Under the pieces are notes generated by a model that ran no database searches, had not been told where the DNA came from, and was given only the letters and a program-made list of their open reading frames with translations. Made by a program: the position numbers and the translations under genes. From Hypholoma sublateritium FD-334 SS-4 (lineage: Eukaryota; Basidiomycota; Agaricomycetes; Agaricales; Strophariaceae): a stretch of DNA of 64,000 nucleotides. Positions 30,488 to 53,658 of this stretch are shown here, in pieces (the stretch's first letter is position 1; each line of letters opens with the position of its first letter). The stretch is from contig KN817577.1 of assembly GCA_000827495.1 (NCBI GenBank), positions 1 to 64,000 of the forward strand. The letters run 5' to 3'.

Positions 30488-33195
30488 ATGTCGCAAAATA
30501 TCAGGCCCGATGACGGATTTTTGCGTGTTATACCACCCCCAGGACATGCCGCCCCGTAAGTACTGCACCGATACTCTAATCGTCTGCACTCACAAGGAAT
30601 AAGTCTACCCAAGGCAGGCGAGAAAAATGTCCTGATCACATCTGCGTTGCCCTATTGCAACAATGTTCCCCATCTTGGTGTGTATTGTGGAGTTTCTGCC
30701 ATCTGGTCGTTGCTCACGGTACACAGGAAACATTATTGGAAGCACTCTGAGTGCTGATGTTTTTTCTCGGTACGTCGTGATATCGCATGGCTTGTCTATC
30801 GTACACTAACACCTTCCGTAGATATAGTCGTGAGTGATCTACACAACGTGCACCGGTATGCAGCCTCTCATCGCCTGGAAGGCTCGCGAAATCAGCGCAC
30901 GCTATACATCTGTGGCACGGACGAGTATGGCACCGCGACGGAAACTCAAGCACTCAAGGAAGGAATAACACCTCAGGAACTGTGTGATAAATACTATGTA
31001 TTGCACAAGGAAACATACAAGTGGTTCGACATCGGGTATGTTATTTTGATTTGTGCAGGTGGTCATCGTTGACTGGCATATCAGATTTGACCATTTCGGC
31101 CGCACTTCTACTCCTCTTCACTCGGAGTATGTATATCTAGAACGTTGCTGTGGTTACCCGATGCTGACCGTCTTAGAATCGCACAGGAGATCTATACGAA
31201 TCTAGGCAAACACGGACTCTTGGAGAGACAGGAAAAAGAACAGACATACTGTGAAGGTTGCCCGAAGTAAGCTCATTTAAATTTCCCTTTGATGTACTAT
31301 TTTAAAGTACATAGATTCCTCGCGGATCGTTTTGTAGAAGGAATTTGCCCCCATTGCGGATTTGATGATGCCCGTGGCGACCAATGCGATGGTTGCAGCC
31401 GCACTCTCGATGCAATCGAACTGATCAAGCCGCGATGCTTGGTAGATAAGACACATGTTGTTACCACCCGCACATCAGCACACATGTATCTAAAACTCAA
31501 TGATATCCAACCACGCACTGAAGAGTGGATCAAGGCATCAGCTAAGGCAGGGAAATGGTCGCCCAACGCCGTGATCAACGGGGACGGAGAACTGATCGAT
31601 GCCCGCTTGAAGAAAGGCCTCATGCCGACACCGCTGACCCGCGACTTGAAGTGGGGTGTCCCGGTGCCCGTTGAAGGCGAAGACGCCTTTGGGATGAAGG
31701 GAAAAGTCCTATGTGCGTATTCCTACTGTTTGTGCGACTGTAAGGATCCAGCTAACTGTTACTGGATAATTAATAGACGTCTGGGTAAGTAATATAATCA
31801 TATCGTCCCAGGATAGCTGTTCATCGTGGGGTTCTAGTTCGATGCGCCTATCGGATATCCTAGTATCACTGCCAACTACACCCCCGACTGGAAACAGTGG
31901 TGGTTCAATCCCAAGGATGTCAACCTATACCAATTCATGGGTAAAGACAATGTTTACTTCCACACCGTCTATTGGCCATCCGTTCAACTCGGGGACGGCC
32001 GTGACTGGACGAAATTACACCATTTGTCAACGACAGGTTTGTGGCCCTCTAAGCCTTGATTCGACGCCTGCTGACCCTGGATCATGAATGCAGAATACCT
32101 GAACTATGAAGGTGGCAAATTCTCCAAAAGCAAAAACCGTGGTGTCTTTGGCCCAGCTGCGAAAGACACTGGCATCCCAGCATCGGTTTGGAGATATTAC
32201 CTTCTTTCATCAAGACCAGAAACCGCTGATGCTATGTTCTCCTGGCCGGAATGCGTGAGTCGAGCAGTCTCTTGTTTTGAGGAAAGATCTCATCAAATTG
32301 GGTGACAGATCGCTGCAAACAACAATGTGTTGCTGAACAAGTGCGTAATTTTATAATCATCATAAAAATAACGTGGTCACGAACTTTTATGCTCAATAGT
32401 TTTGGAAACTTTGTTAATCGTGTTCTCAAATTCGTCTCTTCACAATACGGCGGCATCATTCCTGACTCCAAAGATGCCCCAGGCCCATACTCGCCGAACG
32501 ATCCCGTCGACGGCGAATTTATCTCTTCCGTTAACGGTCTGCTCAAAGATTTTATCGACGCCATGGACGCGGTCAAAATCCGACTCGGCCTGCAGATTGT
32601 CATGCTTATTTCGAGTCAAGGAAACAACTACCTGCAGGCGGCGGGGTTGAACAAAGCGCTCATTGCATCCAATCCTCTCCGCTGCGCTCAAGTCATCTCC
32701 CGCGCGGTCAACCTGATCTACGCGCTCTCTGCGCTGATCTCCCCCTTTATGCCATCGACATCCGACGCCATCCTCTCGCAGCTCAACGCGCCAGCTCGCA
32801 CTGTCTCCGAGGTGCTCAGCAACGACATCCTCGCAGGCCACAAGCTCGGCGAGCCTGAGCATCTATTCAAGAAAATCGAGGAGAAAATGGCGGAGGAGTG
32901 GCGCATCAAGTTCGGGGGAACCGAGGTCGCTAAAGACGCCATCCCGGAGCCCGCCAAACAGTCCAAGCGGAAGGCCGCGAAAAAGGCCGCTGATACCCCG
33001 GCGCTTGCGTCAGACGGGCCTAAGTCCGCAGAGGCCATCGCGCTCGAGGCCAAGGTCGCGGAGCAGGGTCTAACGATCCGCCAGCTGAAAGGGCTCACGC
33101 CGAAGACACCGGAGATAGACGCCGAAATCAAGGCTGCCGTGGAAGTACTGAAATCGCTGAAGGGGAAGTTGGAAGCTGCACTGAAGCAATCATAA
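30488..33195 (+). CDS. MES1: Cytosolic methionyl-tRNA synthetase
   Basis: Charges tRNA-Met. After [11 protein letters not shown] comes the catalytic domain: [16 protein letters not shown] (HIGH-type PHLG), [17 protein letters not shown], zinc-knuckle cysteines (CEGCPK, CPHCGF, CDGCSR), [28 protein letters not shown] and [12 protein letters not shown] (KMSKS loop). The anticodon-binding helical domain follows, then a Lys/Ala-rich linker. The C-terminal [20 protein letters not shown] stretch resembles a WHEP-type tRNA-binding appendage. About ten exons; one small exon lies in the RYS-HRLEG region, where the precise junction is inferred. There is no mitochondrial leader, so the cytosolic form is favoured. 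Confidence 0.94.
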
Positions 33196-33463
33196 TCGAT
33201 CTGGGAAGGTAGGAAGGGCAGAAGATTCCACAATTGTACATCTACCTACGTGACAAAAACTTCAGCAAACACTCCGCATCAAAATTGTACTCATGATAAT
33301 CAGCATCTTTTTCACCTTGAAATTGAAAGGCGTTCTGACTTCCAGAAGGACGAGCTCCTGGACCGTCGAAGCTAACTCTGTATAATTATAGCGGTCCCAT
33401 AGCTCCACAAGAAAAAGAAAAACAGGACGAGCGCTATTATAACCATCATATCAGAAATCTAAT

Positions 33464-33594
33464 AAGTTGCTTATAAGTAATTCTACAATATAAGTGAACA
33501 TATGTATACTTAAATTTTACCTACAGAACAGATGTTATACGTAAAATAAGAACCCTTGAACAGGAAGTAAATTAGGAGAAATCGTTGCTAGTCG
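33464..33594 (+). repeat. Left copy of direct repeat flanking the first membrane-protein paralogue
   Basis: Aligns by eye, with small gaps, to 35548-35670. Shared blocks include TACAGAACAGAT, GAAGTAAAT and AGTCG in the same order and spacing, roughly 70 percent identity. Confidence 0.6.
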
Positions 33595-33631: not shown

Positions 33632-33662
33632 CCTAAATTGGGTCGAAGATAGCCAAATGGGG
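33632..33662 (+). promoter_or_regulatory. 31-bp element, copy 1 (upstream of the 34009 gene)
   Basis: Begins CCTAAATTGGGTCGAAGATA and ends GCCAAATGGGG. It lies 347 bp upstream of the ATG, in the sense orientation of the gene. Four more copies occur on the other strand near the paralogues. Confidence 0.75.
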
Positions 33663-34008
33663 AAAGAGATTTGAGGGGCATGTATTCCTGCACTGAACAT
33701 AGGTCGGTGACCGACACGTCTTAAAGAGGATGCGGTATTCGCAAGAATCAACCAGGCCTCTCTAAAACCAGGCCTTTCTAAAGAGGATGCAGCAGACGTG
33801 AGAATCCTCATAGGGGACGGTCACCAGCCTACACTGAGCAGCGAGATATCAGAAGATCGTTAGAAGATGATCATTCACTTGATTATCAGAGTGTAAGGAT
33901 CTAAGTAACTCGGGGCTCTTTCTAACGTATTTATAGTCTGCTTCTAATAGTTCTATAGCAAGTGGACTCGTTAGCCATCCATCTTTACCCTCTAGTCTAA
34001 GGGCATAC

Positions 34009-35267
34009 ATGGCACCCTCATCATTCGTGAACGCTTCGCCATCGTTGTTCGATAATGTCTCGGCTCTAATATTCTACGAGAACCTTTCACCGGCTTCGTT
34101 TCCTTACGATCCTACGCTTGTTGGATATGTGCTATCCGGAATACTCGGAGTGCGTTCCTTGCCCATGAGCTGCTGTGGAAGTTAGTTTGACTATACGAAC
34201 ACAGGCTCTTTTGTGGGATTTATTCAGCAACATTGGATACGATTATGAGCTGCTTTGGAGATGGCCGAACGAAATTCCTGCTGCCACCTATGTCATTTCC
34301 CGGTGAGCAATTCTTCCGTGAGAGTGCTGATAAAACGTCGTCGGATATACTGACTGATTATCGTACTCGATATTTGCAGACTATCTACTTTGATCTTCAG
34401 CATTGTGTCCTTGAGCTCTACTAGTAAGTGATATGCCACCAGCTTGTCCACTCAACAGCCTGAGTAAATTGCGCATAGCAACCTCGGACACCACACGTTG
34501 TGCAACCTTGGTAGCCGCCATGAAGTGGAGCATTGCAGTCGTGATTCCAACGACGTCTTTGCTTCTTTTTTTTCGGATCCGCGCGCTGTATAGACAGAGT
34601 CGCATCGTGTGCAGTTTCTTCTTCTTCACCTGGCTGGCAGTTTTATGCACATGTTTGCTGCACACTCAAATAGGCATCCTAATAGATATCAAAGCAACTC
34701 GGCAGGCAAGGCGGTGCTTTGTGACAGGAAATGATTCGCTCTTTGTCAATGCATCAACCTTTCTACCAATGGTCAACGATTTCCTGATATTTTGCGCCAC
34801 AACATATAAGTTAACGAGCACGGCTTCAGTGGGCAACCCGACTCCCAAGACAAGAGTAATGATTGCCGTTTTCGGTACCTACCTGCCCGCATTCTCGCGG
34901 ACGTTACTCCAAGACGGCCAAGCCTACCTTTTGTGAGCAATTTGCCTGCCATTTTTGATTTAAATATGGCTGTGTAAGAGCTGATTCTGTTTGCAGAACC
35001 CTGTTCCCGATATACACCTTCACAATAGTGTGTTTCGCTCTTTACCCTCATCAGATCTCGCATTATGCCGTCGTCGTCGCCTTTCCGGGAATCGCGTTAG
35101 CAAACCTGATGGCGTGCAAGATATACCGAAAGACAAGGCTCGGGATACATACCACGTCGGAGACAGATTTTTCAAAACCCTCTCAGCCGATGGTGTTCAA
35201 TGGACGTCCCTCAAACTTTGCCTCACAAATTGACAGAGAACAAAACTCCATAGTAAGCCCGGCGTAG
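34009..35267 (+). CDS. Multi-pass integral membrane protein (DUF6533-like agaricomycete family), paralogue 1
   Basis: Five exons of 141, 98, 44, 454 and 271 nt (34009-34149, 34205-34302, 34380-34423, 34479-34932, 34997-35267) give 335 residues. The N-terminus PYDPTLVGYVLSGILG is joined to ALLWDLFSNIGYDYELLWRW, then SLLLFFRIRALYRQSRIV, FFFFTWLAVLCTCLL, the hallmark LPAFSRTLLQDGQAYLL, and FANLMACKIYRKTRLGI-type ending (here ALANLMACKIYRKTRLGI). About seven membrane segments. The middle-exon lengths 98 and 44 are identical in paralogues 2 and 3. Without the first intron the frame would appear broken by TGA, so the splice is needed. Function is unknown; a receptor-like role is only speculation. 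Confidence 0.85.
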
Positions 35268-35547
35268 TCACATTACTAGAAACAAATCGGAGACAGTGCG
35301 CAGTACCTTTTACCTGTGTAGTTGACATATAGTTTACACTGCACCATATGGTCCGCTGATACACTCACAAGCCTCATGCGTGCGGACAACGGCGACGAGA
35401 AAATCAAAACGAAAACGAACACGCGGAGGCTGGACAATGGTGCACGAAGGTCCGAGTATTTTTTTACGCGATCACGGCATATTCCAGAGCAAGAGGTTAT
35501 TCAGAAAAAAAAGTGTGCCTTTCTCACCATTACATCGTAAAGCAAAG

Positions 35548-35670
35548 GAGTTGCATATAATTCTACATAAGCGAAGATTCGTATACATTCATTATACATA
35601 CAGAACAGATATTACACATACAATAAATCCCCTTGGGTAGAAGTAAATGAGAAGAAACCGTCGCCAGTCG
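35548..35670 (+). repeat. Right copy of direct repeat flanking the first membrane-protein paralogue
   Basis: Partner of 33464-33594, lying in the 3' flank of the IMD-domain gene. Together the copies bracket the paralogue-1 gene and its 31-bp element. Confidence 0.6.
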
Positions 35671-35689
35671 TAAAATGTCCATGAGGGTA

Positions 35690-38600
35690 TCAATGCTTCC
35701 CCGTAATACCGAGGTTAGTCATACTGCGGTTGCTGATCCCACCCATCTCGTAGCTCTTCCTACCCGGAATCAGCCCCCCTCGTGTCTGTGCTACGGCCTT
35801 GCCATCCTCTCGCACACCTAAGCCGTTGTCCGGCGAGCGCGAGCTCAGCGCCGTGGTGCTCGCATTCTTCTTCCCGTCCATCGAGAACAGACCCCGCCCA
35901 CCCGCAGGTGTGTTGCCGACGCCGCTCCCCAGGCTGAAGTTCGTCGTGCCGCCACCGCCGGGGAGGCCCGCGCCCGCGCCCGCCTGGCTGCGCTTCGCCG
36001 AGTCCAGCCCGAGCGCGTTCCCCACGGGCATGCTCAGGCGGCGCATCCAGCTGCGTGGCTTGTCGGGCTTCGAGTCGACGCGCTGGTGCACGCCCTGCGG
36101 CGGCGCGCCGTACTTGCTCACCGAGCACGCCTCGCAGCCGCAGTTCGCCGCGTGCCCCGCGCCCGCCGCGCTGCTCGTGCTCGTGCCGGGGCTCGCGGGC
36201 CGCCGCTCGCGCGCACGGGGCGACGGCAGCGGCGAGTGCGCGCCGCGCGTTGGCGACGCGAGCGGCTTGACGGGCGACAGCGGCGGCGCGAGCTGCTGCG
36301 CGCTGGTGTACGCCTTCTGGCGCGCGACGGCGCCGTCGGGCGCGTCGCCGAGCTCCATCTGCGAGAGCGGCCGCTGGAGCTGGTGGCGCAGCGACGTGCG
36401 GCGCTCGCGGGGCCGCATCACGAGCGGCGCGGGCGTGTCGTCCTCGCGTAGGCTCTGCAGGCGCGCGCGCTCGCGGTCGAGCTCGCGGCTGCGGGCCTCG
36501 AGCTCCTGCTCGCGCGCGTGCAGTTCTTGCTCCTTTACTTTGCGCTCGAGCACCGCGACGTCCTCGCTGCGCTGTTGTTGCTGTTGCTGTTGGCGCTGGC
36601 GGCGTTCTTCATCCGAGCCGAGCATGCGCCGGTTTGTCGTGGGCGATGTGCGTTCTTGATATGCGTCCTTCGGCGCCCGTGCAGTGTCGAGAGGCGGGAG
36701 TGACTGGCCGGCCCTGAGTCGTGGTGAAAGAGGTGTGTCGGCGGGCTCATACCGCGAGGCTAGGTCAGTGACGCTTAGAGGTATCCGTGGGAGCTCTCTG
36801 GGTGGCGGAGAGATGGAACCGGACTACATAAAAAAGGTTACAATCTTATTTGGCTGAGAATGGCAGATGCACGCACATTATACGAGTACCGATTCCGCAT
36901 GGCGGCGACAAGACTGCCCGTGCTTGTGCCTGTGTCCGTCCGCTCCATCGCCCTCGGGTACTTCGCGCCATCCACGGTCCTCGACTTCCCAGGCGAGTCC
37001 ATGACGCCAAACTCCCTGCTTTCGTCGTCATACTGCGGTCTCTGATAACGCAGCGCAGCCAGGTCGGCAGACGACGATGCCCTATGTGACATCTGCGGCA
37101 CCGCCCGCTCATACTCGCGCCGCGGGTCCCGCTCCGCAGGCAGGGAGGTGTGCGACTTCACAGGGATCGGCCGGCGGATCTCATTCGTTGACGACACCGC
37201 CGCCGCAGGCGATATGCGTTCTATATCATCGTCGTCGCCGCGGCTGTGCCCGCGGGGCCTGCTGCGCTGCTCCCGCTCTGCGCGCGGCGGCGACTGCGAG
37301 CCATTCGAGCCGCGGAAGTTCTGGTTCGCCGTCCGGAACGAGTCGTCCAGCTCGCTGTGCGCCGAGACGGGCGAGTCGGCGAGCGCGCCGCCGGCCGACG
37401 GGAATTGGAGGTTGGACGAGGACGACGAGAGCGCCTGCGACAGCCCCGACGGCTGGGGCGCCGCGCGCACGGGCGGGATAGGGAAGTGCGTCGGGGGACT
37501 GGGGAACGCGGACAGCGAGCGCACGGAGCCCGTGTTCGGGTCGACGAACGGGGGCCGGGGCGGCTCCATGTCGCCGTGCGCTGCGGGCTCCGGCGGCGCG
37601 GCGGGGGCCTGTGTGTGTCGGGCCACTGTTGGCGAGGGTGCGCTCAGGTTGTCGCGATGGAGGTCCTGGGAGCTCGCCGAGGCAGACGGCGGGCCCGTCG
37701 AGTATCCGGGGGGCGCATGCGCGCGGGGCAGCTCCAGCTCGCGGCTCTCCGGGGTGCGCTGTGCGTTGCCTGCGGACTGAGGTCGGGCGGCCGCCTCTTC
37801 CTGGATCGGCTTCAGCCCTCCGCCCGCTGCATTGTCGTCGCTCGGCTGGATATCCTCAACGTTGTGCAGGTCAGATGGGAGAATGCCTGTCCAGCCCCCT
37901 TCGCACAGCGCCTTCCACTGGCCGAGGGGCCCGATGGTAGGTGAGAACCGCCGGACACATTCACAGGACTTCTGCCACTCCGAGTCCGCGAGCCGCGAGA
38001 GACTGGCGGCGACGCCGTATATCGTAGAGGAGTGCCTCTGCGTCACATTTAGAGCGTGGTTGCTGGGCTGGGGATGAGTACGTCTTGTGCGATAGGGGTT
38101 TTGATCGTACTCACTATTTCTCCAGCGCCATTTCAGGGCCGAGCGTGCTGATCAAGGTGATGTATCGCGCATGCTCCTCGCTCACATCCGTTGCCTTTTT
38201 CTTAGTTTTCTTTTCGTAATTCTGGCCTGAAAGGGCATTAAAAGCAGAAGCAAAGAGATAGGGATAGACCGATTTACCTGCCTGCTTAATCTTAGCATTT
38301 GCACCAGCCATCTTCTCGTCGTGATTTCGTTCCTCTTTCTAAACAGCCTACATTCGATATAATGGTTCCCGAAACAAAATGATAGTCACTCACTGCCAGT
38401 CTCTTGAACCACTTCTTCACCTCCGTGCTGACCGAATCATACTCCTTATCGGCCACCTTCCCAAACTTGGTATCAACCTCCGCCAGCGCCTCGAACAGCG
38501 TCGCGCTCGTGTTCATCGCGTTCACTGCGCGCACCCAGATATCCCGTCAGCAACGCATGGCACGGCAAGACACAGGGCGGAAGCAGCGCACCAGCAATCT

Positions 38601-38808
38601 CCCCGGTCCCCTTTACACCCGCCGCCTCGCGCAGAGCCTTCGCCAGGCGCTTCTGCAGCGCGCCAACCGCGCCAACCGCTTCGCAGTACTCGTTGAATAT
38701 GCCCAGCAGGCCCTCAACCGCCTTGCATGATTTGTGCACGTCCGCGCGCTCGACGAGGGCGGCCAGCGGAGCGGGAGCGGGCGCGTTCTGACTCGCGGGT
38801 GCCGCCAT
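35690..38808 (-). CDS. IMD/BAR-type membrane-bending protein (IVY1-like) with long disordered tail
   Basis: Starts MAAPASQNAPAPAPLAALVE at 38808. The N-terminal helical domain reads DVHKSCKAVEGLLGIFNEYC, NTSATLFEALAEVDTKFG, YDSVSTEVKKWFKRLAKEER, QNYEKKTKKKATDVSEEHAR and SEWQKSCECVRRFSP, typical of IMD (IRSp53/MIM) coiled-coil domains that bind acidic phospholipids. A very GC-rich Ser/Pro/Arg-rich disordered region follows. The last exon (from about 36770 to 35690) carries a Gln-rich coiled coil after MLGSDEERRQRQQ, a CGCEACS motif, and the end MTNLGITGKH. Fungal IVY1 acts at vacuole or endosome membranes; that is inferred here. Confidence 0.82.
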
Positions 38809-40091
38809 CGCGACGTCGGGGAGTGGGGGATGGCAAGAGGGATGAAGGGGCGGGTAGACGGCAGGGGCGGCAGCCGGTGCCTTCAAGGGTGACCTTGAGT
38901 CCCTTGAATGATGGGCGCGCACTGGACAAGAGGCGCGCGACAGTGCGCTGGGAAAGGTAATCGCATGTTCCCACGCACAGTGGCGCAGGCGCAGCAGCTA
39001 TTTTGATTCGGGACAAAAGGTCGTTCTGAGGAGCACATAAACTCTATCTACATATACGCAAATCAAGACGGTTAAAATGTGCTTTAGGGTTTGTTTTCAG
39101 TTTAGTTCATACGCTTTAATATGGAAGGCTATCGATAGGTTTTGGCAAGGTTTTGGCGTGGCCGAATGTCAATTACGCCGACAGCTCTAAATACACACAG
39201 ATAAATGGGAATTGCGCGTCATTTAGATTGCCTGAAGAGTTCACGTCGGCCAATAGCCAATACGGAGCGCCCCGAGCGCTAATTATATCTGAGCGCGATT
39301 ATACTTGGCTGATAGGCCGGACGATCGTGATAGAAAGTTCAAAGCACTATCTTTAGTTACGTTCAGGGAACCCGCATCGTCTTCATAAAATCGCTGGTAT
39401 AAGTCTACGCTTGTAGCCCAGCCCTTGGTAGTCTCGGGCGCTTATTTCAGCTTACAACTGCGCCAAATCGCGGTCTGTCGCGTATTGCATCTCCAGAAAT
39501 TCACAGGCATCAGAAGCAGAGTTGATGCCTGTTTCATGGTGGCATTAAGCCCTGTTTAGGCTTATGCCTATGAATATACGGCGCCCAAATTGATGACTTG
39601 CTGAAGGTGATAATTTAGGGTAAACCTGTGTATAACGCAGGAACTCAGGCTTGCAAAGCGTAGTCAGCTGGGTAAGACGCTATCCGGAAGAGTATCCGGC
39701 ATGGATGGAGGAAAGGATATTTATGTCCGGTGAGAACCGATGGCGATCTGGCCTTTTTCGTTGCTTCCCAACGGGCTTGGGCGCGTTTTTACGCAGTGGC
39801 GCATGGGGAGATGAGGCTGGTTGGGGTTGTGGCCGCATGGAGGCCTGATTATCTGATAAAGATTCAGGCACGTGGATCAGCAATTATTATCTGATAAAGT
39901 GAACCCCTGCCCGCTCCGCTTCCCCGTCAGATCTAGGCTGACAGCTCTGTCGCGTTTCGTTGTCTGCTGCGCCCCCGTATATAAGCCCACCCATCTCCTC
40001 CCATCTCCTCTTCCCTTCGCCGTTTTGACCCTCCCCCAGCGCCTTTCACTCCAAGCAGCGCCATTTTACCACGTCCCTGGCCTGCGCTGAT
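38809..40091. other. 1.28-kb divergent promoter region (IMD protein / MFS transporter)
   Basis: No supported gene. A TATA-like GTATATAAGC occurs near 39977-39986, about 110 bp before the MFS ATG. The minus-strand side starts within GC-rich sequence. Confidence 0.45.
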
Positions 40092-42394
40092 ATGGCGGCT
40101 GCCGCGCGGACTGCTGCATCAGACTCCTCCGAAGAAGATTCCCTCTTGCCAGGGCCCCGTCACTCGAGCAGCGCAAAGACTTCTTCGATGCGGGCACGCA
40201 TCTTCCACAAGCGCGCGGCATGGCGCCCGCACCCGTTCTGGTTAGCCAGCCCAGCTGGCATCGCTAGCTGCCCACGTAATGACGCTTTCTGTCCAGGCTT
40301 ATCCCAGTCGTTCTCGTAATGTCCATGTCGGTGTGTAATCCTCTCTCATTAGCCTTACCGAGCTGCTGACGTCGGTGTTCGCGCAGCGAGGAGTGACGAT
40401 GTCTCCGCGCATACAGGTCTACAAGGCCATTGCCTGTCGATCTCTGGACGGAGCTACACCTGGAATCGGCGACCTCACGAATTTCACGCTGGCAGGGTGC
40501 GGAGACACCGAGGTTCAAGCGCGGGCCGCGAAAATCCAGGCGTGTATGTGCTTCTTCCCCATCAAAGCTGCATCTATTCAAGTGATCTGCCTCCTCAGCC
40601 GTGGTGACTACAATGAGCGTTCTCAGCGCCATCTCGACGGGTTTCTGGAGTCGGCTGGGTGACACTCACGGCCGGAAATTGATCCTATCGACGTTCCTCT
40701 CTGGCGCTCTCCTAATGTCCGTCATATTTTGTCAGAGATTATGCTCTCATTTGACACGGTCACTAGGGAAGCCGTCTTTGTCTTGGTTATGAAGCCCGAC
40801 TCGATGTTTGGGCGACACGCAGAACGCTTTATCCTCGTTGGCCCCATCATTGAAGGCTTTGTTGGCGGCCTGTCTACTTTCAACGGAGTGACACATGCGT
40901 AATTAACCTGTCTTGAATGCCGGGTCTCTATCCTTATTTTTCGCCAGCTATATTTCAGATTGCACCCGCCATGGTTCACGGTCGACGATATTTTCCACTG
41001 TACAGGGCATGGTATTTGTCGGGCTGGCTATTGGACCATGGGTACGTGTCGCGAAACCTAACGCCCACAAAGCTAACTCATGGACTCTAGATTGGGGGCC
41101 TCTTCTTCCCTCCGAAAGGCTACAGCGACGGCTATTTTTACGCCAGCATCAGTCTCATCTCTCTCACTCTGCTCTATGTGATCTTCGTCTGTCCCGAATC
41201 AAAAGTGCCTGCTGCACCAGTAGAAGATGTACGGGAGCGCACCAGCCCCGCATATAAAGAATCCCCGATCCTCGTTGTCCGCCGACTAGCTCTCAAGTTC
41301 ATCTCCGCACTACTGCTTCCTATCTCTATGTTTGCTCCACGCCGGATTCCCGGCTCGTCACGATATAATTACAACATGACTTTTTGCGGGCTAGCTCTAT
41401 TCCTCTATATCGTATCGACAGTAAGTCTTGATTTGCACTGTTCAATCCAATTTTCTCACCAATACCTAGGGTGTCTATTCAGCCAAATACCTCTATGCAC
41501 AACACGTTTATACGTGGACGACTGCCCAAGTACGTTCTTAATTATACAATCAATATATCCTATTTATGACGTTTATCACAGTTGGGGTACTACATGTCCA
41601 CTCTATGGATATCCCGCGCATTCAACCTCCTCGTCTTCCTTCCCTGTAAGTTCTACCTGATACCGATCGCAAAGAAGGCTACTGATAGCCTTAACCAGTC
41701 CTCCTCTCCTACCTCAAACCCAAGCCCACCAGCCCACCAGGAACTAATCCCAACGCGTACGATATCGGGCGAGAGCTCAACTTCGACCGATACCTCGCGG
41801 GGATCTCCCTTGCGGTCGACGGCCTCGCGGACGCCCTCGTCGCCGTCGTGTCGAACAAGTCGCAGCCCATCTTCGTCGCGCTCTCCTGCCTCTCGTCGTT
41901 CACCTCGGGCGGGAACCCCGCGCTGCACTCGCTCGGCGCAGTGTGTCTGCACGCGTGCGGCTTCGGGCAGGACGTCGGCGCGCTCTTCGGCGCGCTGGGC
42001 GTCCTCTCAGCCATCGGGCACATCGTCTCGGTGCGTCCCCTTCTTAACAGCTTAATGGGTGCCCGCTCCGTGTACACGGCATGCTGACAGCCCGCTTTGC
42101 GCGCAGCCCTCGATCTACGCGCTCACGTACGGCTCGTCGGTGGGGAACTTCCGCGAGGCGATCTTCGTGCTCGGCGCGTGCCTGCTCTTCGCTGCGGTCG
42201 GCTGCCTCGCGATGATCTCGCCCGACGAGAAGAACATCGCGCTCGGGGACGATGGTGGGTCGAGCGGCGGTGCGGGTGCAGAGGCGCCGGAGGTGCGCGT
42301 GCGGGACTATGCGTACCAGGCTATCGGTGCGCCGGAGGAGGACGCGGAGCTCGAGGACGCGGCGCGGCGGGCCGTAGTTGGGGACCGGGTGTGA
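40092..42394 (+). CDS. MFS transporter, about 12 TM segments
   Basis: Begins MAAAARTAASDSSEEDSLLP with a Ser/Glu-rich cytosolic N-terminus. Spliced frame: HPFWLIPVVLVMSMSRGVTMS, SPRIQVYKAIACRSLDG, AVVTTMSVLSAISTGFWSRL then GDTHGRKLILSTF (MFS G-x-x-x-D-R/K-x-G-R-K loop), FGRHAERFILVGP, ISDCTRHGSRSTIFSTVQG, a central hydrophilic loop with RERTSPAYKE, and the C-terminal half ending RRAVVGDRV. The exon ending CTA AT joins G GAA GCC through a weak GTCCGT donor at about 40715. It resembles uncharacterised basidiomycete MFS proteins near the tetracycline/SLC46 type; the substrate is unknown. Confidence 0.85.
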
Positions 42395-42609
42395 TTGGTG
42401 TGGTTAGTCCGACGCTGATAATGATTCATGACACGGACTGAGGACTGGGATGCCTGCATCCTGGTTTATATTTTACGAGCCAAGGTGTGCTTTTAGTGTA
42501 TGTATGTTTTAGAAGCTGTATGTTCGAGTTGTAGTTGTTAGATTTTGATAAAATGATTTGTATGAGACGAATAACTTCCTTTTGTGGAACTCGCGCCTTG
42601 AGGAAAGCC

Positions 42610-44163
42610 ATGACGGACGCGCCGCCTGCGCCGACGCCGCTGCACCTGCTGCGCTCGCACTCGGCGCCCATCAGCACCCTCGCATTGTCGCCCGACAACG
42701 AGCGCATCTACTCCGCCGACGCCACCGGCCTCGTCGTCGTCACCAACACCCGCACCCTCCGCGCCCTCGCCGCCTGGAATGCGCATACCGACTCGATCCT
42801 CGGCATCGAGGAGTGGCACACATTCGTCATCACGTCTGTACCTTCCTCCCCACGGGAACGATCGCACGGCTGATTCGTCTGGTCGCCAGGCACGGGCGCG
42901 ACAACAAGCTGCATGTGTGGCGGCGCATCGAGGAGCTCCCCGCCGCCGCCCGCATCGGCGGCTCCGCGGCGCTCCCGAGTCTCCCCGTCCCCGCGCTGTG
43001 CTATTCAATGGACGTGAACGCGCTCAACTTCTGCCGCTTTGGCCTTCTCCCTCTCTCCCCACCGAACGACGGCGAGGCGGAGGCAGCGCCCACGGCGCTG
43101 TTCGCGCTCCCGAACCTCGTCGACTCGTCCACGGTGCGCGGGCCCCTTCGCGCACATCGGCACATTTGACACGAGCACGAGCACCCCGCAGGCGGACGTG
43201 TGGACCCTCCCCGCGCGCACGCGGCTGCACGCGGCGATCGGGCAGGACGACAAGGCGCCGCGGGCAGCCGCCAACCCCGGCGCGCGGAACACCACCGGTG
43301 CGCCTGCCTCTGTCCCACCTCTCGCGGCGGTCTGATTCCTAAGTATACAGGCATAATCATGGCGCTTCACCTCTTCCAGCGCCCCGGCGGGGCGCTGCGC
43401 CTGCTCACCGCGTACGAGGACGGCAGCGTCGCGCTGCGCGAGTATACCCGTGGCGACGCGCCGTCCGTGGAGGGCGCTGGCTGGGCGGCGCTCTGGGCGG
43501 TGCGCCTGCATGGCGAGTCTGGTGCGTGCGCCGTGCTAATGTGTGTGTTTTTCTTGGAGGGCGCTGGCTGACGACGACGGCGGGGCGGGCAGTGATGGCG
43601 ATGCGCGTCGCGCGTGCAGGCGACTTTGCGCTCACCGTCTCAGCGGACCACATCGTCGGGCGCTACAATCTTGCAGTACGTGCTCTCCTTGCACTATGGT
43701 TGTATGTAAATTTACATTTCTGTGTGCGCAGGACGACGCGCCGGCCGACGGGCAGCACGGCGTGATCATGCGCACGAAGCACGCGGGGAACGGCGCCGTC
43801 GCGCTGCGCGACGACGGACGCGTATGCGCGGTCGGCGGGTGGGACGGACGGTGCGCATATACCCTCTTTTTTCCGCGACGAGCCTGACCTGTTGGGGCAC
43901 GCAGCGCCCGCCTGTACTCGACTAAGACTCTCAAGCCGCTTGGGACACTCAAGTACCACAAGACGGCGTGCCAGTGTCTTGAATTCGCGCGGCAGGCCCC
44001 CGGTGCGAGTGCCCCGGAAGAGGGGTCTGGTCGCGCGGAGGTGGACGAGGACGACGATGAGGAGATGAGCGCGGCGGAGGTGGAGGAGCGGACGCGGTGG
44101 CTCGTCACTGGGTCGAAAGATAGCAGGGTTGCGATCTGGTCGTTGTTGAGTTTTGACAAATAA
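42610..44163 (+). CDS. ASA1: ASA1-like WD40 protein of the ASTRA complex
   Basis: Seven or so exons, starting MTDAPPAPTPLHLLRSHSAP at 42610. WD-type blades: ISTLALSPDNERIYSADATG, AWNAHTDSILGIEEW, THGRDNKLHVWR, LTAYEDGSVALREY, VSADHIVGRYNLA, VCAVGGWDGRARLYSTKTL and WLVTGSKDSRVAIWSLL at the very end. An acidic insertion (EVDEDDDEEMS) precedes the last blade. Length and the GRDNKLHVW motif match ASA1/GNB1L, which works with Tel2-Tti1-Tti2 in PIKK maturation. Coding GC is high. The start is the only ATG before the first blade. Confidence 0.88.
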
Positions 44164-44310
44164 AACTTGGGATTTCGCGCGTCTGTTTCTAATTGTATTC
44201 TCTAATTTGAAGGCCATACATTCAAAGTAAGCAATTTTGGACTAAAAAATGCATCTGCAAGTTTTTAACGATTGATATTCTATTCAGAAAAACAATCACT
44301 TTTTGCAAGA

Positions 44311-45642
44311 CTATGCGTCATTGGCTAGGGACCTTCCATCCGCGTCAACTTGTCGGATGAAACTTGGGAAACTACGATTAAACGCCATCGCCTCAAAAGG
44401 CCTTAATGAGATATCTGTGTCCGACGCGGTATGTATCCCCAGTCTTGTCTTCCGGTATATTTTGCACGCCATCAAGTTCGAAAAAGCGGTTGATGGTAAG
44501 GCGATGACAATGCTATAACGTGAGATCTTGCTTGGGTACGAAGCGGAACAGACTATTGCGAAGGTGTATATGGGTACGAGGGGCCTGTCAACGGGGGCAA
44601 CGCGTGTAAGTGTAAGTTCTATCAATAATGAGAGGGATGTCACTGACAGAAAATAAGCTTGGCCGTCCTGGAGCAATGTCCGCGAGAATGCAGGTAGGTG
44701 GCGTCCGAAAACAGCAACCATTGCCCTTTTCTGGGGAGTCGGGTCGGCAACTTCAGCCATGATCGTCAGCCTGTACGTTATGGCGCAGAATATCAGGAGA
44801 TCGTTGGTCATCGACACGAGTCTCGACACGGTGACGTAGGCCGAAGAATTTCGTATAGTGAAGCACCGTCCTGCTTGCTCAATTTTCTTGACATCCAGTG
44901 TGAAAACATTAACCTGGGTGTGGAGCAGACATGCGCATGACACCGCTAGCCATGTAAGGAAAAAGAAACCGCACACAATGCGATTGTCTTGATACACTGC
45001 GCGGACCCTCCAGAAGAAGAGCAGAGAGGTCGACGACACCGCTATGACGATGCTCCACTTCTCGACCGTCGCCAATTTCGTGCAATGCGCGGTGTCCGTG
45101 GTCACTATGTACGGTTTACTTGACGAACAGCATGTAGGGTGAACGGCACTTACCAGAAAATAGCAGGATCGCAATGCTGAAGATCAAATTTGATATCCTT
45201 CAAATTTTACATGTTTACACGCGATTAGAACAAGATTGGAAGGCACGATGATCAGTAGGTATGTATAGTATCTAATCAGCGTTCGTTGGGACACAATCTC
45301 ACAAACATCGCTTACCGGGAGATAAAATAAGTGGCAGCAGGTAGCTCGATCGGCCATTTACAAAGCAGCTCATAGTCGTATCCGGTATTGCTGAACAAAT
45401 CCCACACAAATGCCTGTGCTCACAAGGAAAGTCAGATCGATGCAGAGTACTAGCTAGTAGCGGCTGAAGGAACACACTCCGAGGATCCCGGCAAGAACGT
45501 GACTAACAACCGTTGGATTGTAAGGTATGAAAGCCAATGAAGCGCTTTCACTGGATATTGAGGCTGATGGACCATACAACAGCGACGGGGAGGCAGCCAT
45601 GAGGGTACCAGCGTGTGGTTCAGGTAAACTCGGGGGCGGCAA
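44311..45642 (-). CDS. Multi-pass integral membrane protein, paralogue 3 of the family
   Basis: Five exons (45642-45478, 45413-45316, 45197-45154, 45104-44648, 44584-44311) of 165, 98, 44, 457 and 274 nt give 345 residues. It starts MPPPSLPEPHAG; an internal Met (MAASPSL) is an alternative start. Landmarks: YNPTVVSHVLAGILG, AFVWDLFSNTGYDYELLCKW, TDTAHCTKLATVEKWSI, LLFFWRVRAVYQDNRIVCGF, LPAFSRTLLQDGQAYFL and SNLMACKIYRKTRLGIHTAS. The frame is intact once spliced. It is tandem with paralogue 2 on the same strand, and a 31-bp element lies about 205 bp upstream. Confidence 0.85.
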
Positions 45643-45846
45643 AGACAGATGATTATAACAAGATTATAAGCAGATTCCCACATGTTGCCCTCAAGTCCGT
45701 CCAAGACGCAGATCTCACATATGTCTAAATATATGGAAAGAGGCCCGAGATCACAGGTGCGGTCTCCAAGGAATAGCCTGTGAATAGTAGTGAATAAACA
45801 TCTAATGCAGGAGTAAGTATCTACCCCAATCTCTGAAGTTCGCCTT

Positions 45847-45877
45847 CCCTATTTGGCTTGCGTCGATCCAATTTAGG
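45847..45877 (-). promoter_or_regulatory. 31-bp element, copy 2 (upstream of paralogue 3)
   Basis: In the gene's orientation it begins CCTAAATTGGATCGACG and ends GCCAAATAGGG. It lies 205 bp upstream of the 45642 ATG. Confidence 0.75.
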
Positions 45878-46157
45878 CTGAAGAAAGTTACGCGGCAATA
45901 AAACATCGCAGAAGACGGAATTTTCTCTCACCTCATATCGCGCCTGGGATTAAAAGACGTGACACAGCCGTATGTAGCTGTTCGCGAAGTTTAAAGACAG
46001 CAAGGTTGTGATCCGGTCTCTGTCAGATTTCTTGATATACTAACATCTAATTGTGTCATACCGGAAGTTAGGGTGTTGATGTGATTTTTTGGGCTATTTA
46101 CTCTACAGACTACGGAAGCCAACATGACTACGCATGACTTTGTTCTGCATCAATCTG

Positions 46158-47407
46158 TCAAGTGAAACTTGTGGCACTACGAACAAACGCCATTGCCCGA
46201 GATGGCTTCACTAAGGAATCTGTCTCCGAAGCGGTATGTATCCCAAGCCTTGTTTTTCGGTATATTTTGCATGCCATCAAATTCGCGAAAGCGATTGCGG
46301 GGAAGGCAACGACGACGGTATAACGTGAGATTGTATGCGGATACAGAGCGTAACACACCATTGAGAAGGTGTATATCGGGACGAGGGTTCTACAAATAGC
46401 GTCACCTCCAGCCCACAAGAGAGGCAGTTTACTCACAAAAAATAAGCTTGTCCATCCTGCAGTAAAGTCCTCGAGAACGCGGGGAGATATTTTCCAAAAA
46501 GAGCAACCATTAATCTTTTCTTGGGAGTCGGGTTATCGACCTCAGCCATGGCCATAAGCCTATACGTTATGGCGCAGAATATCAAGAGGTCGTTGACCAT
46601 TGGTACGAGTGTTGACGCGATGATGAAGGTCGAATAGCTGCCCGTTGTGAAGCACCGCCCTGCTTGCTGAATTTGCTCGAGGTCCAATACAAAAACGCTA
46701 AACTGGGTGTGGAGGACAGATGCACACGCAACCGCCAACCAGGCCAAAAAAAAGAAACCGCAAACAATGCGATTGTCTTTATACACCGCGCGGACCCTCC
46801 AAAAGAAGAGCAGAGACGTCGTCGAGATTGCGACTGCGACGCTCCACTTCTCGGTTGTCACCAACCTTGCGCAAGACGCAGTGTCCGTGGTCACTATGCA
46901 CAGTTTACTTGACGAGAGTGCAGGTTGACTGAACGGCTCTCACCAACGAATACTAGGGTCACGATGCTGAAGATCAGAGTCGATATTCTTTAGCGTTTAT
47001 ATGTAGTTGGCAAGCGGGGTGATCGGTAAAGTATGATGTCTGATCAGCGCTTTTGGAGAAACACTCTGAGAAGCAGGTCGCTTACCGGGAAATAAGGTAA
47101 GTGGCAGCAGGTACTTCGACCGGCCATCTCCAAAGCAGCTCGTAGTCGTAACCAATATTGCTGAATACATCCCACACAAATGCCTGTGTTCATAGGCATA
47201 GTCAAATTGATCCAGATGCCTGTAGTAGCTGAAGGGACGTACTCCCAGAATACCGGACAGTACGTATCCGACAATTGTAGGATCGTAATGCAGGGAAGAC
47301 AATGACGAACTATTCAAAGGGGAGGGGGAAGCTGTCATAGGTGTGCAAGAGCTTGTTGGTTGGAGTGGTAAAGATGGATGACTTGCCGAAGTTCCACATG
47401 CCGCCAT
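46158..47407 (-). CDS. Multi-pass integral membrane protein, paralogue 2 of the family
   Basis: Five exons (47407-47243, 47183-47086, 46987-46944, 46893-46437, 46389-46158) of 165, 98, 44, 457 and 232 nt give 331 residues. Landmarks: YDPTIVGYVLSGILG, AFVWDVFSNIGYDYELLWRW, STLIFSIVTLVFV, RVRAVYKDNRIVCGFFFLAW, KYLPAFSRTLLQDGQAYFL, and FANLMACKIYRKTRLGIHTA. It ends RSATSFT. The three intact members share intron positions and phases, showing recent duplication. A 31-bp element is 210 bp upstream. Function unknown. Confidence 0.87.
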
Positions 47408-47616
47408 AGAAGCAGACTAAATATATGTTCAAATCTATAGAAAGAGCCCCGAGTTAGATCACAGCTGATCGCAGGCACTGGCCGTCTGCGACCATTAAGG
47501 ATTAAATTTACGCACCTTGATAACCAAGTGATTCAGTGAACGTCCATCTTTTGATATCTCAATGCAGAAGTATATAAAGCAACTACCCCAATTTACGCTC
47601 TCAATCAGTCGGCCTT

Positions 47617-47647
47617 CCCCATTTGGCTTCCTTCGACCCAATTCAGG
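47617..47647 (-). promoter_or_regulatory. 31-bp element, copy 3 (upstream of paralogue 2)
   Basis: In gene orientation begins CCTGAATTGGGTCGAAGGAA and ends GCCAAATGGGG; 210 bp upstream of the 47407 ATG. Confidence 0.75.
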
Positions 47648-48313
47648 CTAGACTCCGGCAAAGGAAGCCGAAAGTTACTAGGCAGATGAAGCAGCCCAGA
47701 AAATGGATTCAAAGGTCGAAAGCTCTCGCCCATATATTACTCTCGCCTCATTCTACATAATTACGCAAGCATAGTGGATGAAAATTAATCTCGTTCTTGT
47801 AGAGACTGTAGCACGTTATTGTGACACTGGTGTACCATGCTACAGTCATATGGCGGAGGATAAAGCTTATATTTGTGCATAGAAAAAGCACGCACTTCCG
47901 AGCGGAAATGATTCTCACCTGTATGCGAAAACGGTAGAAATTCCTCAGAAGTGGACGGGAATGATCTCGGACGATCTACAGTGGCCCTTTCCACGGGCCA
48001 ACTCCGAGACTTAGTACCAGTGCCATATCATACGGGTGGAGGTGAAGGTCCTCCGATCATTTTGGCTGGAGCTCGAGCACCGAATGCTGAATACCAGAAC
48101 CGACCTCCTGATACACCAATTTGTGGATGGCTTTCCGTTGAATTTGCCAAGCCCGCCCAGGGGTCAATCAGATGTCGCCTCCGGCGCTATTTATAGTACA
48201 TAATTTATAGTATAACTATAGTTTTATCACTTTAGTTGCTGATCACATCTTTTGGACCTGTGGATTCTAAGGCAGGCGCGAAGAGTAGCTGGTGGTTTAG
48301 CTCAGGTTTCTGT

Positions 48314-48344
48314 CCCAATTTGGCCTCCTCTGACCCAATTTAGG
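48314..48344 (-). repeat. 31-bp element, copy 4 (orphan)
   Basis: In minus orientation begins CCTAAATTGGGTCAGAGGAG and ends CCAAATTGGG. No intact paralogue lies immediately downstream on the minus strand. Confidence 0.65.
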
Positions 48345-48611
48345 GCAGAAAATTTGATTGTGATTTGTGAACTCCGCGCACAGTGGCAGGCATAATTATC
48401 AATAATACTGTTAGTACTAGTACAAGGCCCTTATAAAAATTCACAATCAGAATAGGTGTCCCTTAATGGTGTAGATAAGTGCGTACAACCTCAGACTCCA
48501 GTACACGGTAGCTTCTCGTCCGCGGACCCATTAACATCGTTCCTACTATTTGGGCTTCGATTACGGCGATACAGCAGAGGCTTTAATTAGCCGTTTATAA
48601 ACAGGCATAAA

Positions 48612-48800
48612 GAGAGCGATTATTGCTGAGCAAGTCTCCCAAACCAATGCCTACGGCGATATCATGTAAATTACAACGGAAGAATCCAGTAAGCTCATTC
48701 ATGTTTAGGATTCCAGGGAGCGCATATCCGACTGGTGTAGAATTGCATGGCAGGCAGTCCCAGGAAGAGCCTGGCTGCCCGCGGAGCAATGTTTGAGATG
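48612..48800 (-). pseudogene. Relic of a fourth membrane-protein paralogue (5' part only)
   Basis: On the minus strand TCGGATATGCGCTCCCTGGA (48734-48715 region) matches the VGYVLSGIL exon-1 end of the intact copies. About 70 nt further, TAG|GCATTGGTTTGGGAG and CTTGCTCAGCAATA match the start of exon 2 (AFVWD-FSN). The intron-1 position is preserved, but the donor is lost (TAAACATG instead of GGAGTRYGT) and everything downstream is absent. A 31-bp element lies upstream at 49066-49096. Confidence 0.7.
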
Positions 48801-49065
48801 TCTGCCAATAAACAATCAACAATTCGTTGGCGGGTAGAATGGTTCTCCACTTGGCGGTTGGAGTGGTGTAGGCCTTATTTATTCTATGCATTTCACAGGA
48901 GTTTGTCAGAACTCAAAAAAAAGTTATTTATATGTTGTCGCTGTCAGAGGCGTGGGCGGCTCAAGGGTGGCTAAGGGTGGCCACCACGTTGGCTAGGTGT
49001 TGCCTCTTGCGAATATTCGATATTTTCCGTAAATTTCATCCTGCCATTCCGAGTCGGGGGTCGAT

Positions 49066-49096
49066 CCCAATTTGGTTTCCGCGAACCCAATTTGGG
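49066..49096 (-). repeat. 31-bp element, copy 5 (upstream of the relic paralogue)
   Basis: In minus orientation begins CCCAAATTGGGTTCGCGGAA and ends CCAAATTGGG. Upstream of the decayed copy at 48.6-48.8 kb. Confidence 0.65.
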
Positions 49097-50572: not shown

Positions 50573-52023
50573 TCAGATGATCCCCGCCGCTCTCAGGTTC
50601 CGCGTCAGTGCGAGTTCAGACGGGCTCACGGTAACGAGGTTGCCGGACGAGTCGCGCCGGGTCAGGGTTTCGTCGTGTTCCTCGGTCGCGTGATTCTGTT
50701 CAAAGTGGAAGCCGAAAACCTCTTCCAGATTGCGGCGCACACTGCGGTCATGCTGCACTTGAGCAGTTGAGGGAGCTGCAGGGGCTGCAGCTGCCCGCAC
50801 CGACGTTTCCCAGCGCTTGACCCTCCAATATCCGATGATGGAAGAGAGCAGGAGGAACCAGCCTACGAAAAAAGTCAGCAACAAGAAAACATGAATAGCG
50901 GAGAGATGCCGGGGAATTGTGCATGAAGCATGCAACAGATATATGTAGGCATCGGTGGAAAGGCTGGAGAGCATACCTAATGTCATGAACAGGAACGACA
51001 GCCAATCCCTCGATGACGCACTCAGCGGCTCGTTCTGCGTGGGCGTAGCCCCTGCAGGATTCGGTGTGGTTCCAGATCCTCCCCAGCTGGCATCCGAAGG
51101 TATGGCCGATGCATCTTCGTTCGTATTCTCGTCAGTCACAAGTGTACGAGAGTAGAAGCCGTATTGAATGAGTGTCAGTCCGAGCCCGGCGCGGGAGCCG
51201 AATTTAGCGGCATGAGAAGTGTGCAGGAGATAGGTGAGGAGAAAGCCAGCGAACTGGAAGAAGAACGATATGAAGATGTTCAGGCAGAAGATCAAGAAAG
51301 ACCCCGTTGGGAGGTCGTCGATGATTAAGTCGCTGCCATCCAAACCTGCAGGAGCGTGAATTGTCGTTTCCCAGTAGGGTGGGACGGCATCTGCCTGTGC
51401 TTCTAGATAAGTCTAGATGAAATTAGTCACAAATCTGTGTATCGGACGAGCGCTGGACGCACTGGTGGGGTCTCCTTCTGGTTGTCCTCGGGGACTATGT
51501 GCACATCGCCATTTGCCGATAAAATCGTTCTGGGTGCTTGAGGTTTAGCCGTGACATTTGCAAACACGCCATCATTTTCGATGCCGCCGCCTGTTGGCCT
51601 TGCGGAGTGATTTTCCGTGGGGACAGGCTGGTAGTGCGTCGGTAGAATTGCTCCCGCAACTCGCTGGAAAAATGAGCGCCGTGGCTTGGGGATGGCAATA
51701 GGGGCGGTGGGTAAAAAGCCGTTGGAGTTACCCCAGTCGTTCGGCAGTGCGTGTGATGTCGGCGGTGGGGGGGAGCCTGGCGGCGGGAAATCGTACTCGC
51801 GCTCAAAGTCGTATCCTCCCGTAAGAGCCGTTGTCTCTGGCCTTGAGGACGACTCAAGGGGTGCATTAGCAGGCGAGGTAACGTTGTGGGTGAGTGGGGT
51901 AGACTCGTGGTCGCTGTGAACATCGTGCTCGTCGTCATTGTCTAGGTCAAATGCATCCTTCATCTCGCGGCCTGCGTCCGGCGCGGAGCGCGGATTGGAG
52001 AGGGGGAGGTAGCGGGCTGGCAT
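50573..52023 (-). CDS. BSD2: BSD2/NDFIP-like Rsp5 adaptor, three TM segments
   Basis: Three exons (52023-51463, 51412-50977, 50862-50573) total 1287 nt, 428 residues. The cytosolic N-terminus is Pro/Ser-rich. The first splice junction creates PPTY, a PPxY motif for WW domains of the Rsp5/NEDD4 ubiquitin ligase, in the stretch KETPPTYLEAQADAVPPYWE typical of the family. Membrane segments: FLIFCLNIFISFFFQFAGFL, a second around AGLGLTLIQYGFY, and WLSFLFMTLGWFLLLSSIIG, then YWRVKRWE. It ends TRNLRAAGII. Yeast BSD2 sends metal transporters to the vacuole; a Golgi/endosome location is inferred. Confidence 0.87.
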
Positions 52024-52598: not shown

Positions 52599-53658
52599 TC
52601 ACATATCGTCCACACTCCACTGGTAACTTTCTGTAACCAGCCGTTTCTTCGCATTTTTGCTTTCGAAGAATTTCTTTTCAAAGCCTGTGCCCCTGTCTGT
52701 GGAACGATGAGAAAAGGTCGCGCACTGGTGATACTCAAAAAAGGCGACTCACCCACTCCATCCCATCGGTACCCAGGCTTGATTCCAAACCGATTCGGGG
52801 GTGGTGGAGGCCCTGAGTATTCAGGTTTCCGCGGTCCTTTCGCTCTCTTTTTCTGTGTGGTATGATATAAATGGGTTAATTAAAATTTAACAACCCAGAG
52901 CTTGTATCACTCACGCTTAAGAACGCAGCCGCAGGATCATTCCAGAGCTCTTTCGCCTTGAGGTCCTCGTTCAAATCTTTATCATCGGCATGTCGTGCAA
53001 ACGCAGTCGTCCTGTTCTTCTCCAGCTCCTTTCTCCGCTTCTCGGCCTCCTCCTTCTGCACGAGGCCCTTGCCCCACTCCATCTTCTGTGCCTCCTTCTC
53101 CTCCTGCAGCCGCTTCAGCCGCGCCGCATTTGCGCGCGCCGCCTTCGTATCGATCTTCTTCCCCGACGCGTCGCGGTACACGGTCTCCTGTGCGCGCGCT
53201 ATCTCCTCCGCGGTCAGGTCGTCCGTCGACGTCACATTGTTCTGCGGCATGATCTTCTTCAGCTGGTCCGGGCGCACAAGTCCACCCACGAACGGCGCCG
53301 GAGCGTCGACGACCAACGGCTTCTCGTCCGGTGCGGGACTCTCCTCCTTCACTTTCTGTTCGCCCTCCTGCACGGTGATCCAGCTCGGCTCGGCAGCGGC
53401 GTCGGCGACCTTGCGCTTCTTGAAGCCACGGTCCTTCTCGACGACCGCCTGCGAGAACTCGTCGTCCTCGTCTTCCACCATTGGCGCCTCCCCCCAACCG
53501 CCGTCTTCGTCGCGTATCATCGAGCCGCCCGCCAGTGGTTGCGCGGTCTCCTTCGCTTTTCGCTTCTTCTTCTTCAGCGGCGCCGCTTTTGAGAGAATGG
53601 CTTCGGCCTTCGCGCCTGACATGTACTTCTCTGCAAGGTAAGTCTTGAGATTTGACAT
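52599..53658 (-). CDS. BUD13: BUD13/CWC26, RES-complex pre-mRNA splicing factor
   Basis: Exons 53658-52915, 52852-52753 and 52696-52599 total 942 nt, 313 residues. It starts [20 protein letters not shown]. The middle is Lys/Glu-rich with [13 protein letters not shown], the Bud13 domain start. The C-terminus has the conserved [20 protein letters not shown], joined to [12 protein letters not shown] and SYQWSVDDM. The RES complex (Bud13, Snu17, Pml1) helps splicing and nuclear retention of pre-mRNA. It is divergent from SPC3 across 249 bp. Confidence 0.94.

What the first reader, a model, noticed from the sequence alone, without database searches (positions are those of the whole stretch)
33632..49096. 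A 31-bp conserved element in five copies tracks the membrane-protein paralogue family
Near-identical 31-mers occur at 33632-33662 (+) and, on the minus strand, at 45847-45877, 47617-47647, 48314-48344 and 49066-49096. In gene orientation the start is CCTAAATTGGGTCGAAG and the end GCCAAATNGGG. Copies 1, 2 and 3 lie 347, 205 and 210 bp upstream of the three intact paralogues, always in the sense orientation; copy 5 precedes the relic gene. The strand flips with the gene at 33.6 kb. Spacer sequence around them is much less conserved, so the element looks functional (a factor site or replication/transposition signal) and not only duplicated background. Two AAATTGG-like half-sites about 17 bp apart suggest a dimer site.
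Basis: partly seen in the sequence, partly recalled or inferred. Interest (0 to 1): 0.75.

Follow-up and report, generated by a model that had tools for sequence, protein, structure and literature searches.

The report
Shared promoter element of mushroom gene cluster
In a wood-rotting mushroom, a small cluster of related membrane-protein genes carries the same 31-letter DNA signal in front of each gene, most likely a binding site through which the genes are controlled together; this is an ordinary kind of feature in a new place.

Summary
Five copies of a 31-bp element lie at the stated places, and pattern searches of the 46.1-Mb genome find only these five. The window matches Hypholoma sublateritium FD-334 SS-4. 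The three intact genes encode DUF6533-related, probably seven-helix membrane proteins.

Between the intact genes the element is 26-28 of 31 identical. Adjoining 31-bp flanks are near chance, 4-fold sites 53-64%, aligned intron columns 69-72%. The other 27 paralogues examined lack it. Other sets of paralogues show different conserved upstream blocks of their own.

The element has two CC(A/T-rich)GG boxes in direct repeat, 20-21 bp apart (two helix turns), with a varying spacer. Best reading: an upstream control site bound twice on one face of the DNA. A MADS-box (Mcm1/SRF-type) factor is the leading, unproven candidate; a CCAAT box is the rival.

Copy 5 precedes a weak gene relic, copy 4 nothing recognisable. 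Distances to the start codons are 346, 246 and 278 bp, not 347, 205 and 210. No related species' DNA was reached, so the evidence for constraint comes from paralogues alone.

The parts
33632..33662 (+). Element copy A, upstream of gene A
   Evidence: 346 bp before the ATG
45847..45877 (-). Element copy B, upstream of gene B
   Evidence: 246 bp before the ATG
47617..47647 (-). Element copy C, upstream of gene C
   Evidence: 278 bp before the ATG
48314..48344 (-). Element copy D, no recognisable gene after it; TATAAAT sequences 105 and 119 bp downstream
49066..49096 (-). Element copy E, upstream of a weak gene relic; both boxes CCAAATTGGG; TATAAATA 134 bp downstream
33906..33946 (+). Second conserved 5' block, gene A, with TATA-like sequence at 33928
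   Evidence: 76% to 47407-47456 over 50 columns
47407..47456 (-). Second conserved 5' block, gene C, with TATA-like sequence at 47425 (another TATA-like sequence lies at 47576)
45722..45733 (-). TATA-like sequence of gene B
   Evidence: in register with A and C in the alignment
34009..35267 (+). Gene A (public partial model HYPSUDRAFT_143659, P0003, lacks the exon 1 that I read from 34009)
44311..45600 (-). Gene B (HYPSUDRAFT_44208, P0001)
46158..47338 (-). Gene C (HYPSUDRAFT_44210, P0002)
48590..48754 (-). Weak relic with similarity to exons 1-2 of the family, after copy E
   Evidence: local alignments reached by 1 (A), 0 (B) and 0 (C) of 200 shuffles

Best explanation
The 31-mer is an upstream promoter element (activating or repressing site) of a small cluster of DUF6533-related membrane-protein genes in Hypholoma sublateritium. 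It holds two boxes in direct repeat, consensus [CGA]C[TC]AAATNGG[GA], two helix turns apart. A sequence-specific factor probably binds both boxes side by side on one face of the DNA, 114-266 bp upstream of a TATA-like sequence, so that the cluster genes share one control. A MADS-box factor of the Mcm1/SRF type is the best single candidate (about one in three). Shown: copies, positions, orientation, restriction to the cluster, identity above flanks and 4-fold sites, two-box structure. Inferred: binding, the factor, the effect, and that the TATA-like sequences are the core promoters.
For: Five copies in 46.1 Mb, all in this cluster; those of the three intact genes lie upstream of them in sense orientation on either strand. 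Element 26-28 of 31 between intact genes against 3-11 of 31 in the flanks, exon identity 0.69-0.77 and 4-fold sites 23/41, 24/45, 34/53; best ungapped 31-mer in intron 2 only 19-22; shuffled 5' regions reach at most 21. 17 of 22 box positions but 2 of 9 spacer positions are invariant (P 0.012). Boxes agree at 7-10 of 11 positions at offset 20. All five left boxes and three of five right boxes fit the Mcm1 consensus on one strand or the other. Three MADS-domain matches above cut-off in the genome.
Against: All evidence of constraint is between paralogues; no orthologous promoter was available. The excess over 4-fold sites is small for B-C (P 0.014) and uncorrected for the choice of position; aligned intron-2 columns are 69-72% identical, so B-C alone would not be remarkable. 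B-C similarity runs about 50 bp past the element. Only copies B, D and E have both boxes fitting Mcm1. The single box is not over-represented in the genome. CCAAT is in all five left boxes. No expression or binding data.
Confidence: 0.72

Rival explanations
1. Same promoter site, but the core of the left box is a CCAAT box (HAP/NF-Y complex) on the reverse strand, and the right box is bound by another factor.
For: CCAAT on the reverse strand in 5 of 5 left boxes. That CCAAT boxes are common in fungal promoters is recalled.
Against: CCAAT is in only 2 of 5 right boxes although the right box is as well kept; conservation covers the whole CC..GG box and the left-right likeness is unexplained.
Confidence: 0.2
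2. Duplication remnant: the element looks conserved because the units were copied recently, or gene conversion re-copied this stretch.
For: The genes are duplicates; the element lies at the left edge of visible homology; aligned intron columns are still 69-72% identical; B-C similarity runs on past the element.
Against: Sequence between element and TATA has diverged far more than the element; a 31-bp conversion patch in five copies on two strands with diverged flanks is unlikely; box positions kept over spacer positions.
Confidence: 0.15
3. End or remnant of a mobile element.
For: Copies D and E stand without an intact gene.
Against: Pattern searches find no copies outside this cluster; the copies at the intact genes are all in the gene's sense. 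Target duplications and inverted ends were not specifically searched for.
Confidence: 0.03

Closest known systems
CArG boxes / Mcm1-type sites of MADS-domain factors (CC(A/T)6GG in the abstract of PMC10178880, search listing; CCYWWWNNRG in a passage of PMC11449735)
   Same: Near-palindromic CC(A/T-rich)GG boxes; left boxes strict CC(A/T)6GG in 3 of 5 and Mcm1 consensus in 5 of 5; paired in helical phase
   Different: Right boxes fit Mcm1 in 3 of 5 and strict CArG in 0 of 5; binding by any MADS protein not shown
CCAAT box (HAP/NF-Y; recalled)
   Same: CCAAT on the reverse strand in 5 of 5 left boxes
   Different: Present in 2 of 5 right boxes; does not explain the two-box repeat
SNB1 / DUF6533 seven-helix membrane proteins of mushrooms, for the controlled genes (abstract and passages of PMC10949477)
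   Same: Homologues P0010, P0011 and P0012 give DUF6533 matches, P0011 above the cut-off; the P0001 model has seven long helices at low confidence
   Different: P0001-P0003 give no DUF6533 match; function not known

Membership tests
Conserved promoter element | Consistent position and orientation upstream of the genes | tested here: met
   3 of 3 intact genes in sense orientation, 246-346 bp before the ATG
Conserved promoter element | More conserved than surrounding and synonymous sequence | tested here: met
   Flanks and 4-fold sites, paralogues only; weak for the pair B-C alone
Conserved promoter element | Changes transcription | not testable with these tools
   No expression data
MADS (Mcm1/SRF) site | Boxes fit the published consensus | tested here: inconclusive
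   Left 5 of 5, right 3 of 5 for Mcm1; strict CArG 3 of 5 and 0 of 5
MADS (Mcm1/SRF) site | A MADS-domain factor is encoded in the genome | tested here: met
   Three PF00319 matches above cut-off
MADS (Mcm1/SRF) site | Bound by that factor | not testable with these tools
   Needs a binding assay
CCAAT box (HAP/NF-Y) | CCAAT pentamer in every box | tested here: not met
   Left 5 of 5, right 2 of 5
Mobile-element end | Copies dispersed in the genome | tested here: not met
   5 of 5 matches in one cluster
DUF6533 (PF20151), for the genes | Pfam match above the curated cut-off | tested here: not met
   None in P0001-P0003; homologue P0011 above it, P0010 and P0012 below it

The most novel reading that the evidence does not exclude
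The membrane-protein family carries a private regulatory code: each subgroup of paralogues has its own upstream element, and in this cluster the orphan copies D and E, left after gene loss, still act as enhancers, so that a two-site factor coordinates, or chooses among, receptor-like paralogues, somewhat as locus control does in receptor gene families of animals.
Probability: 0.07. Interest if true: 0.65.

Novelty: new member of a known kind. Interest (0 to 1): 0.3.

Why it matters
It is a clear case of footprinting between paralogues in a mushroom genome: an element found only at one gene cluster, with a two-box layout that can be tested in a reporter. A relative of these proteins, SNB1, is needed for fruiting-body patterning (abstract and passages of PMC10949477), so a handle on the control of this family would be of some use to developmental mycology.

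Tried and rejected
Other occurrences. The two boxes at fixed spacing with up to 2 mismatches gave 13 rows: the five cluster copies at 0-1 mismatch and 8 others, all at 2 mismatches, of which two rows are one palindromic site; about 7 expected by uniform-base arithmetic, reversed control 1. The left 17-mer with up to 2 mismatches gave 8 matches, 4 of them elsewhere, none with the right box. Boxes at variable spacing gave 8 matches, 5 of them elsewhere against about 3 expected by the same arithmetic, reversed control 0; the one on contig 266 overlaps a 30-bp tandem repeat. So loosely similar pairs at other spacings do exist.

The single box looked enriched against the reversed control (144 against 47); Markov models built on 189 kb of this genome expect 171-203 and 55-134, so it is not.

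DNA search with 121 bp around copy C found only itself, but that tool also missed a 73% repeat and copy B, so I give it no weight.

A family member beside an inverted box pair on contig 17 (L046) was suggested by a weak tblastn match and rejected: one short 36-column match. That copy E outlived its relic gene is not secure (P 0.03-0.09). GPCR-like fold matches (best E 0.012, none at or under 0.001, model pLDDT 59) are too weak to use.

I first took blocks shared by other paralogue pairs for exons; tblastn did not match any of the 11 checked, so I report them as possible promoter blocks. The first scan of paralogue loci took minus-strand loci in the wrong orientation; one search repeated it gene-oriented over whole 3.4-kb loci with the same outcome. 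One search stopped with a script error and was redone. Paper searches for the motif letters, organism and factor gave listings in which I saw nothing on this element; the hits were not opened, and one of the three concerns the Aspergillus CCAAT-binding complex.

Full report
What is there. Exons in the window match three public proteins of Hypholoma sublateritium FD-334 SS-4: HYPSUDRAFT_44208 (gene B), 44210 (gene C) and the partial 143659 (gene A).

The element.

Relation to genes. The element ends 346 (A), 246 (B) and 278 (C) bp before the ATG, and a TATA-like sequence starts 266, 114 and 192 bp after it; gene C has another at 41 bp, and copies D and E have TATAAAT-type sequences at 105, 119 and 134 bp. 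The starts of B and C are those of the public proteins; that of A is my reading of exon 1, which the public partial model lacks. Copy E precedes a weak relic: its best local alignment to gene C starts 311 bp after the element, against 322 bp in gene C, and 1 (A), 0 (B) and 0 (C) of 200 shuffles reach the observed scores. After copy D no relic was found: 17 (A), 159 (B) and 163 (C) of 200 shuffles do as well.

Constraint. In the alignment of the three 5' regions nothing is similar before the element; the element stands at 83-90%; similarity then falls, and returns around the TATA-like sequence. BLAST at E 1e-3 finds two 5' noncoding blocks for A-C, the element (33 bp, 91%) and the TATA block (76%); for B-C one block of 94 columns, 73%, that holds the element and about 50 bp after it; for A-B none. 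Ungapped 31-bp flanks over all ten copy pairs score 3-14 of 31. Exon identity is 0.69-0.77; 4-fold sites are identical at 23/41 (A-B), 24/45 (A-C) and 34/53 (B-C); the element has 26, 28 and 26 of 31 (P 1.1e-3, 1.2e-5, 1.4e-2, not corrected for the choice of position). Intron 2 is a stricter yardstick: 51/71, 46/67 and 67/93 aligned columns identical, with gaps, and best ungapped 31-mers of 19, 19 and 22 (a laxer alignment gave 56/70, 54/72 and 70/91). In 100 shuffles of the 5' regions no 31-mer pair exceeds 21. Inside the element 17 of 22 box positions but 2 of 9 spacer positions are invariant (P 0.012).

Restriction to the cluster. One exon of gene C gives 38 matches in the genome: three are the cluster genes at 62-99% identity, 35 others are at 28-42%. 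I had loci of 30: the 3 cluster genes and 27 others. The weight matrix scores 45-48 in the cluster and at most 9.1 in the 27, against a maximum of 10.9 in shuffled 1.5-kb stretches. The 8 matches without loci were not scanned with the matrix; the genome-wide patterns cover them at up to 3 mismatches.

Other subgroups. Among all 435 pairs of those 30 upstream regions the best shared 31-mer is 29 of 31 (L012-L015, contigs 206 and 77); the three cluster pairs score 28, 27 and 26; a few other pairs score 24-27. I had taken these others for exons, but tblastn with the family proteins matches none of the 11 blocks checked. Some look like recent duplicates with long upstream similarity (L031-L033, L012-L015); one block, around GACACTTYARAT, is shared by four paralogues on two contigs (L013, L023, L024, L025). 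So clade-private upstream blocks may be general in this family, each with its own sequence; none resembles the 31-mer. Their gene starts are unknown, so promoter position is inferred.

Architecture and likely factor. The boxes agree at 7-10 of 11 positions at offset 20; each box matches its own reverse complement at 6-10 of 10 possible positions. In CC..GG register they start 21 bp apart. All five left boxes fit the Mcm1 consensus on one strand or the other (copy C only on the reverse strand, shifted by one base); three of five right boxes fit; strict CArG is met by three left boxes and no right box. Of 51 Mcm1-consensus sites in the window, the only pairs at 19-23 bp are those of copies B, D and E; copies A and C do not form a strict pair. 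The genome has three MADS-domain matches above cut-off. CCAAT is in five of five left and two of five right boxes on the reverse strand. The single box is not over-represented. I put MADS at about one in three.

The genes. P0001-P0003 give no DUF6533 match; the Pholiota homologue P0011 does above the cut-off, the Flammula P0010 and Crassisporium P0012 below it, and the Flammula P0009 does not. A low-confidence model of P0001 (mean pLDDT 59) has seven helices of 20 residues or more. The abstract and passages of PMC10949477 describe SNB1, a DUF6533 protein with seven predicted helices, in fruiting-body development.

Verdict. A real, mostly well-delimited, cluster-specific promoter element; a normal kind of feature. 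I saw nothing on it in the paper listings searched. Its factor and effect remain to be shown.

Noticed in passing
33442-33594 and 35526-35670: A direct repeat of about 150 bp, 73% identical, flanks gene A; the first copy ends 38 bp before the element. It may be the 3' end of a lost neighbouring copy. A genome search with the second copy found only itself, but that search also missed the first copy.
   Followed up: partly
L013, L023, L024 (contig 30) and L025 (contig 59), about 600-640 bp before the exon-4 match: Four other paralogues share a block around GACACTTYARAT that is not matched by the family proteins: a possible second subgroup-specific promoter element.
   Followed up: partly
L012 and L015, about 630 bp before the exon-4 match: 29 of 31 identical block TAAATATAGATCAAGAAAGGG..., TATA-like, in two paralogues on different contigs.
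   Followed up: partly
L046 1501-1530 (contig 17, 506762-506791): An inverted pair of the same boxes, 20 bp apart start to start; no family gene found in the 3-kb locus.
   Followed up: partly
L066 1490-1548 (contig 266): A 30-bp tandem repeat, two copies, holding AAATTGGG words; unrelated to the family as far as seen.
   Followed up: partly
34009-34149: The public model of gene A (P0003, partial) starts at exon 2; an open exon 1 matching that of B and C lies here.
   Followed up: yes
28590-29051 (-), 31289-33192 (+), 50576-51343 (-), 52879-53865 (-): Neighbouring genes by Pfam: OPT oligopeptide transporter, methionyl-tRNA synthetase, NEDD4/Bsd2 family, Bud13.
   Followed up: no
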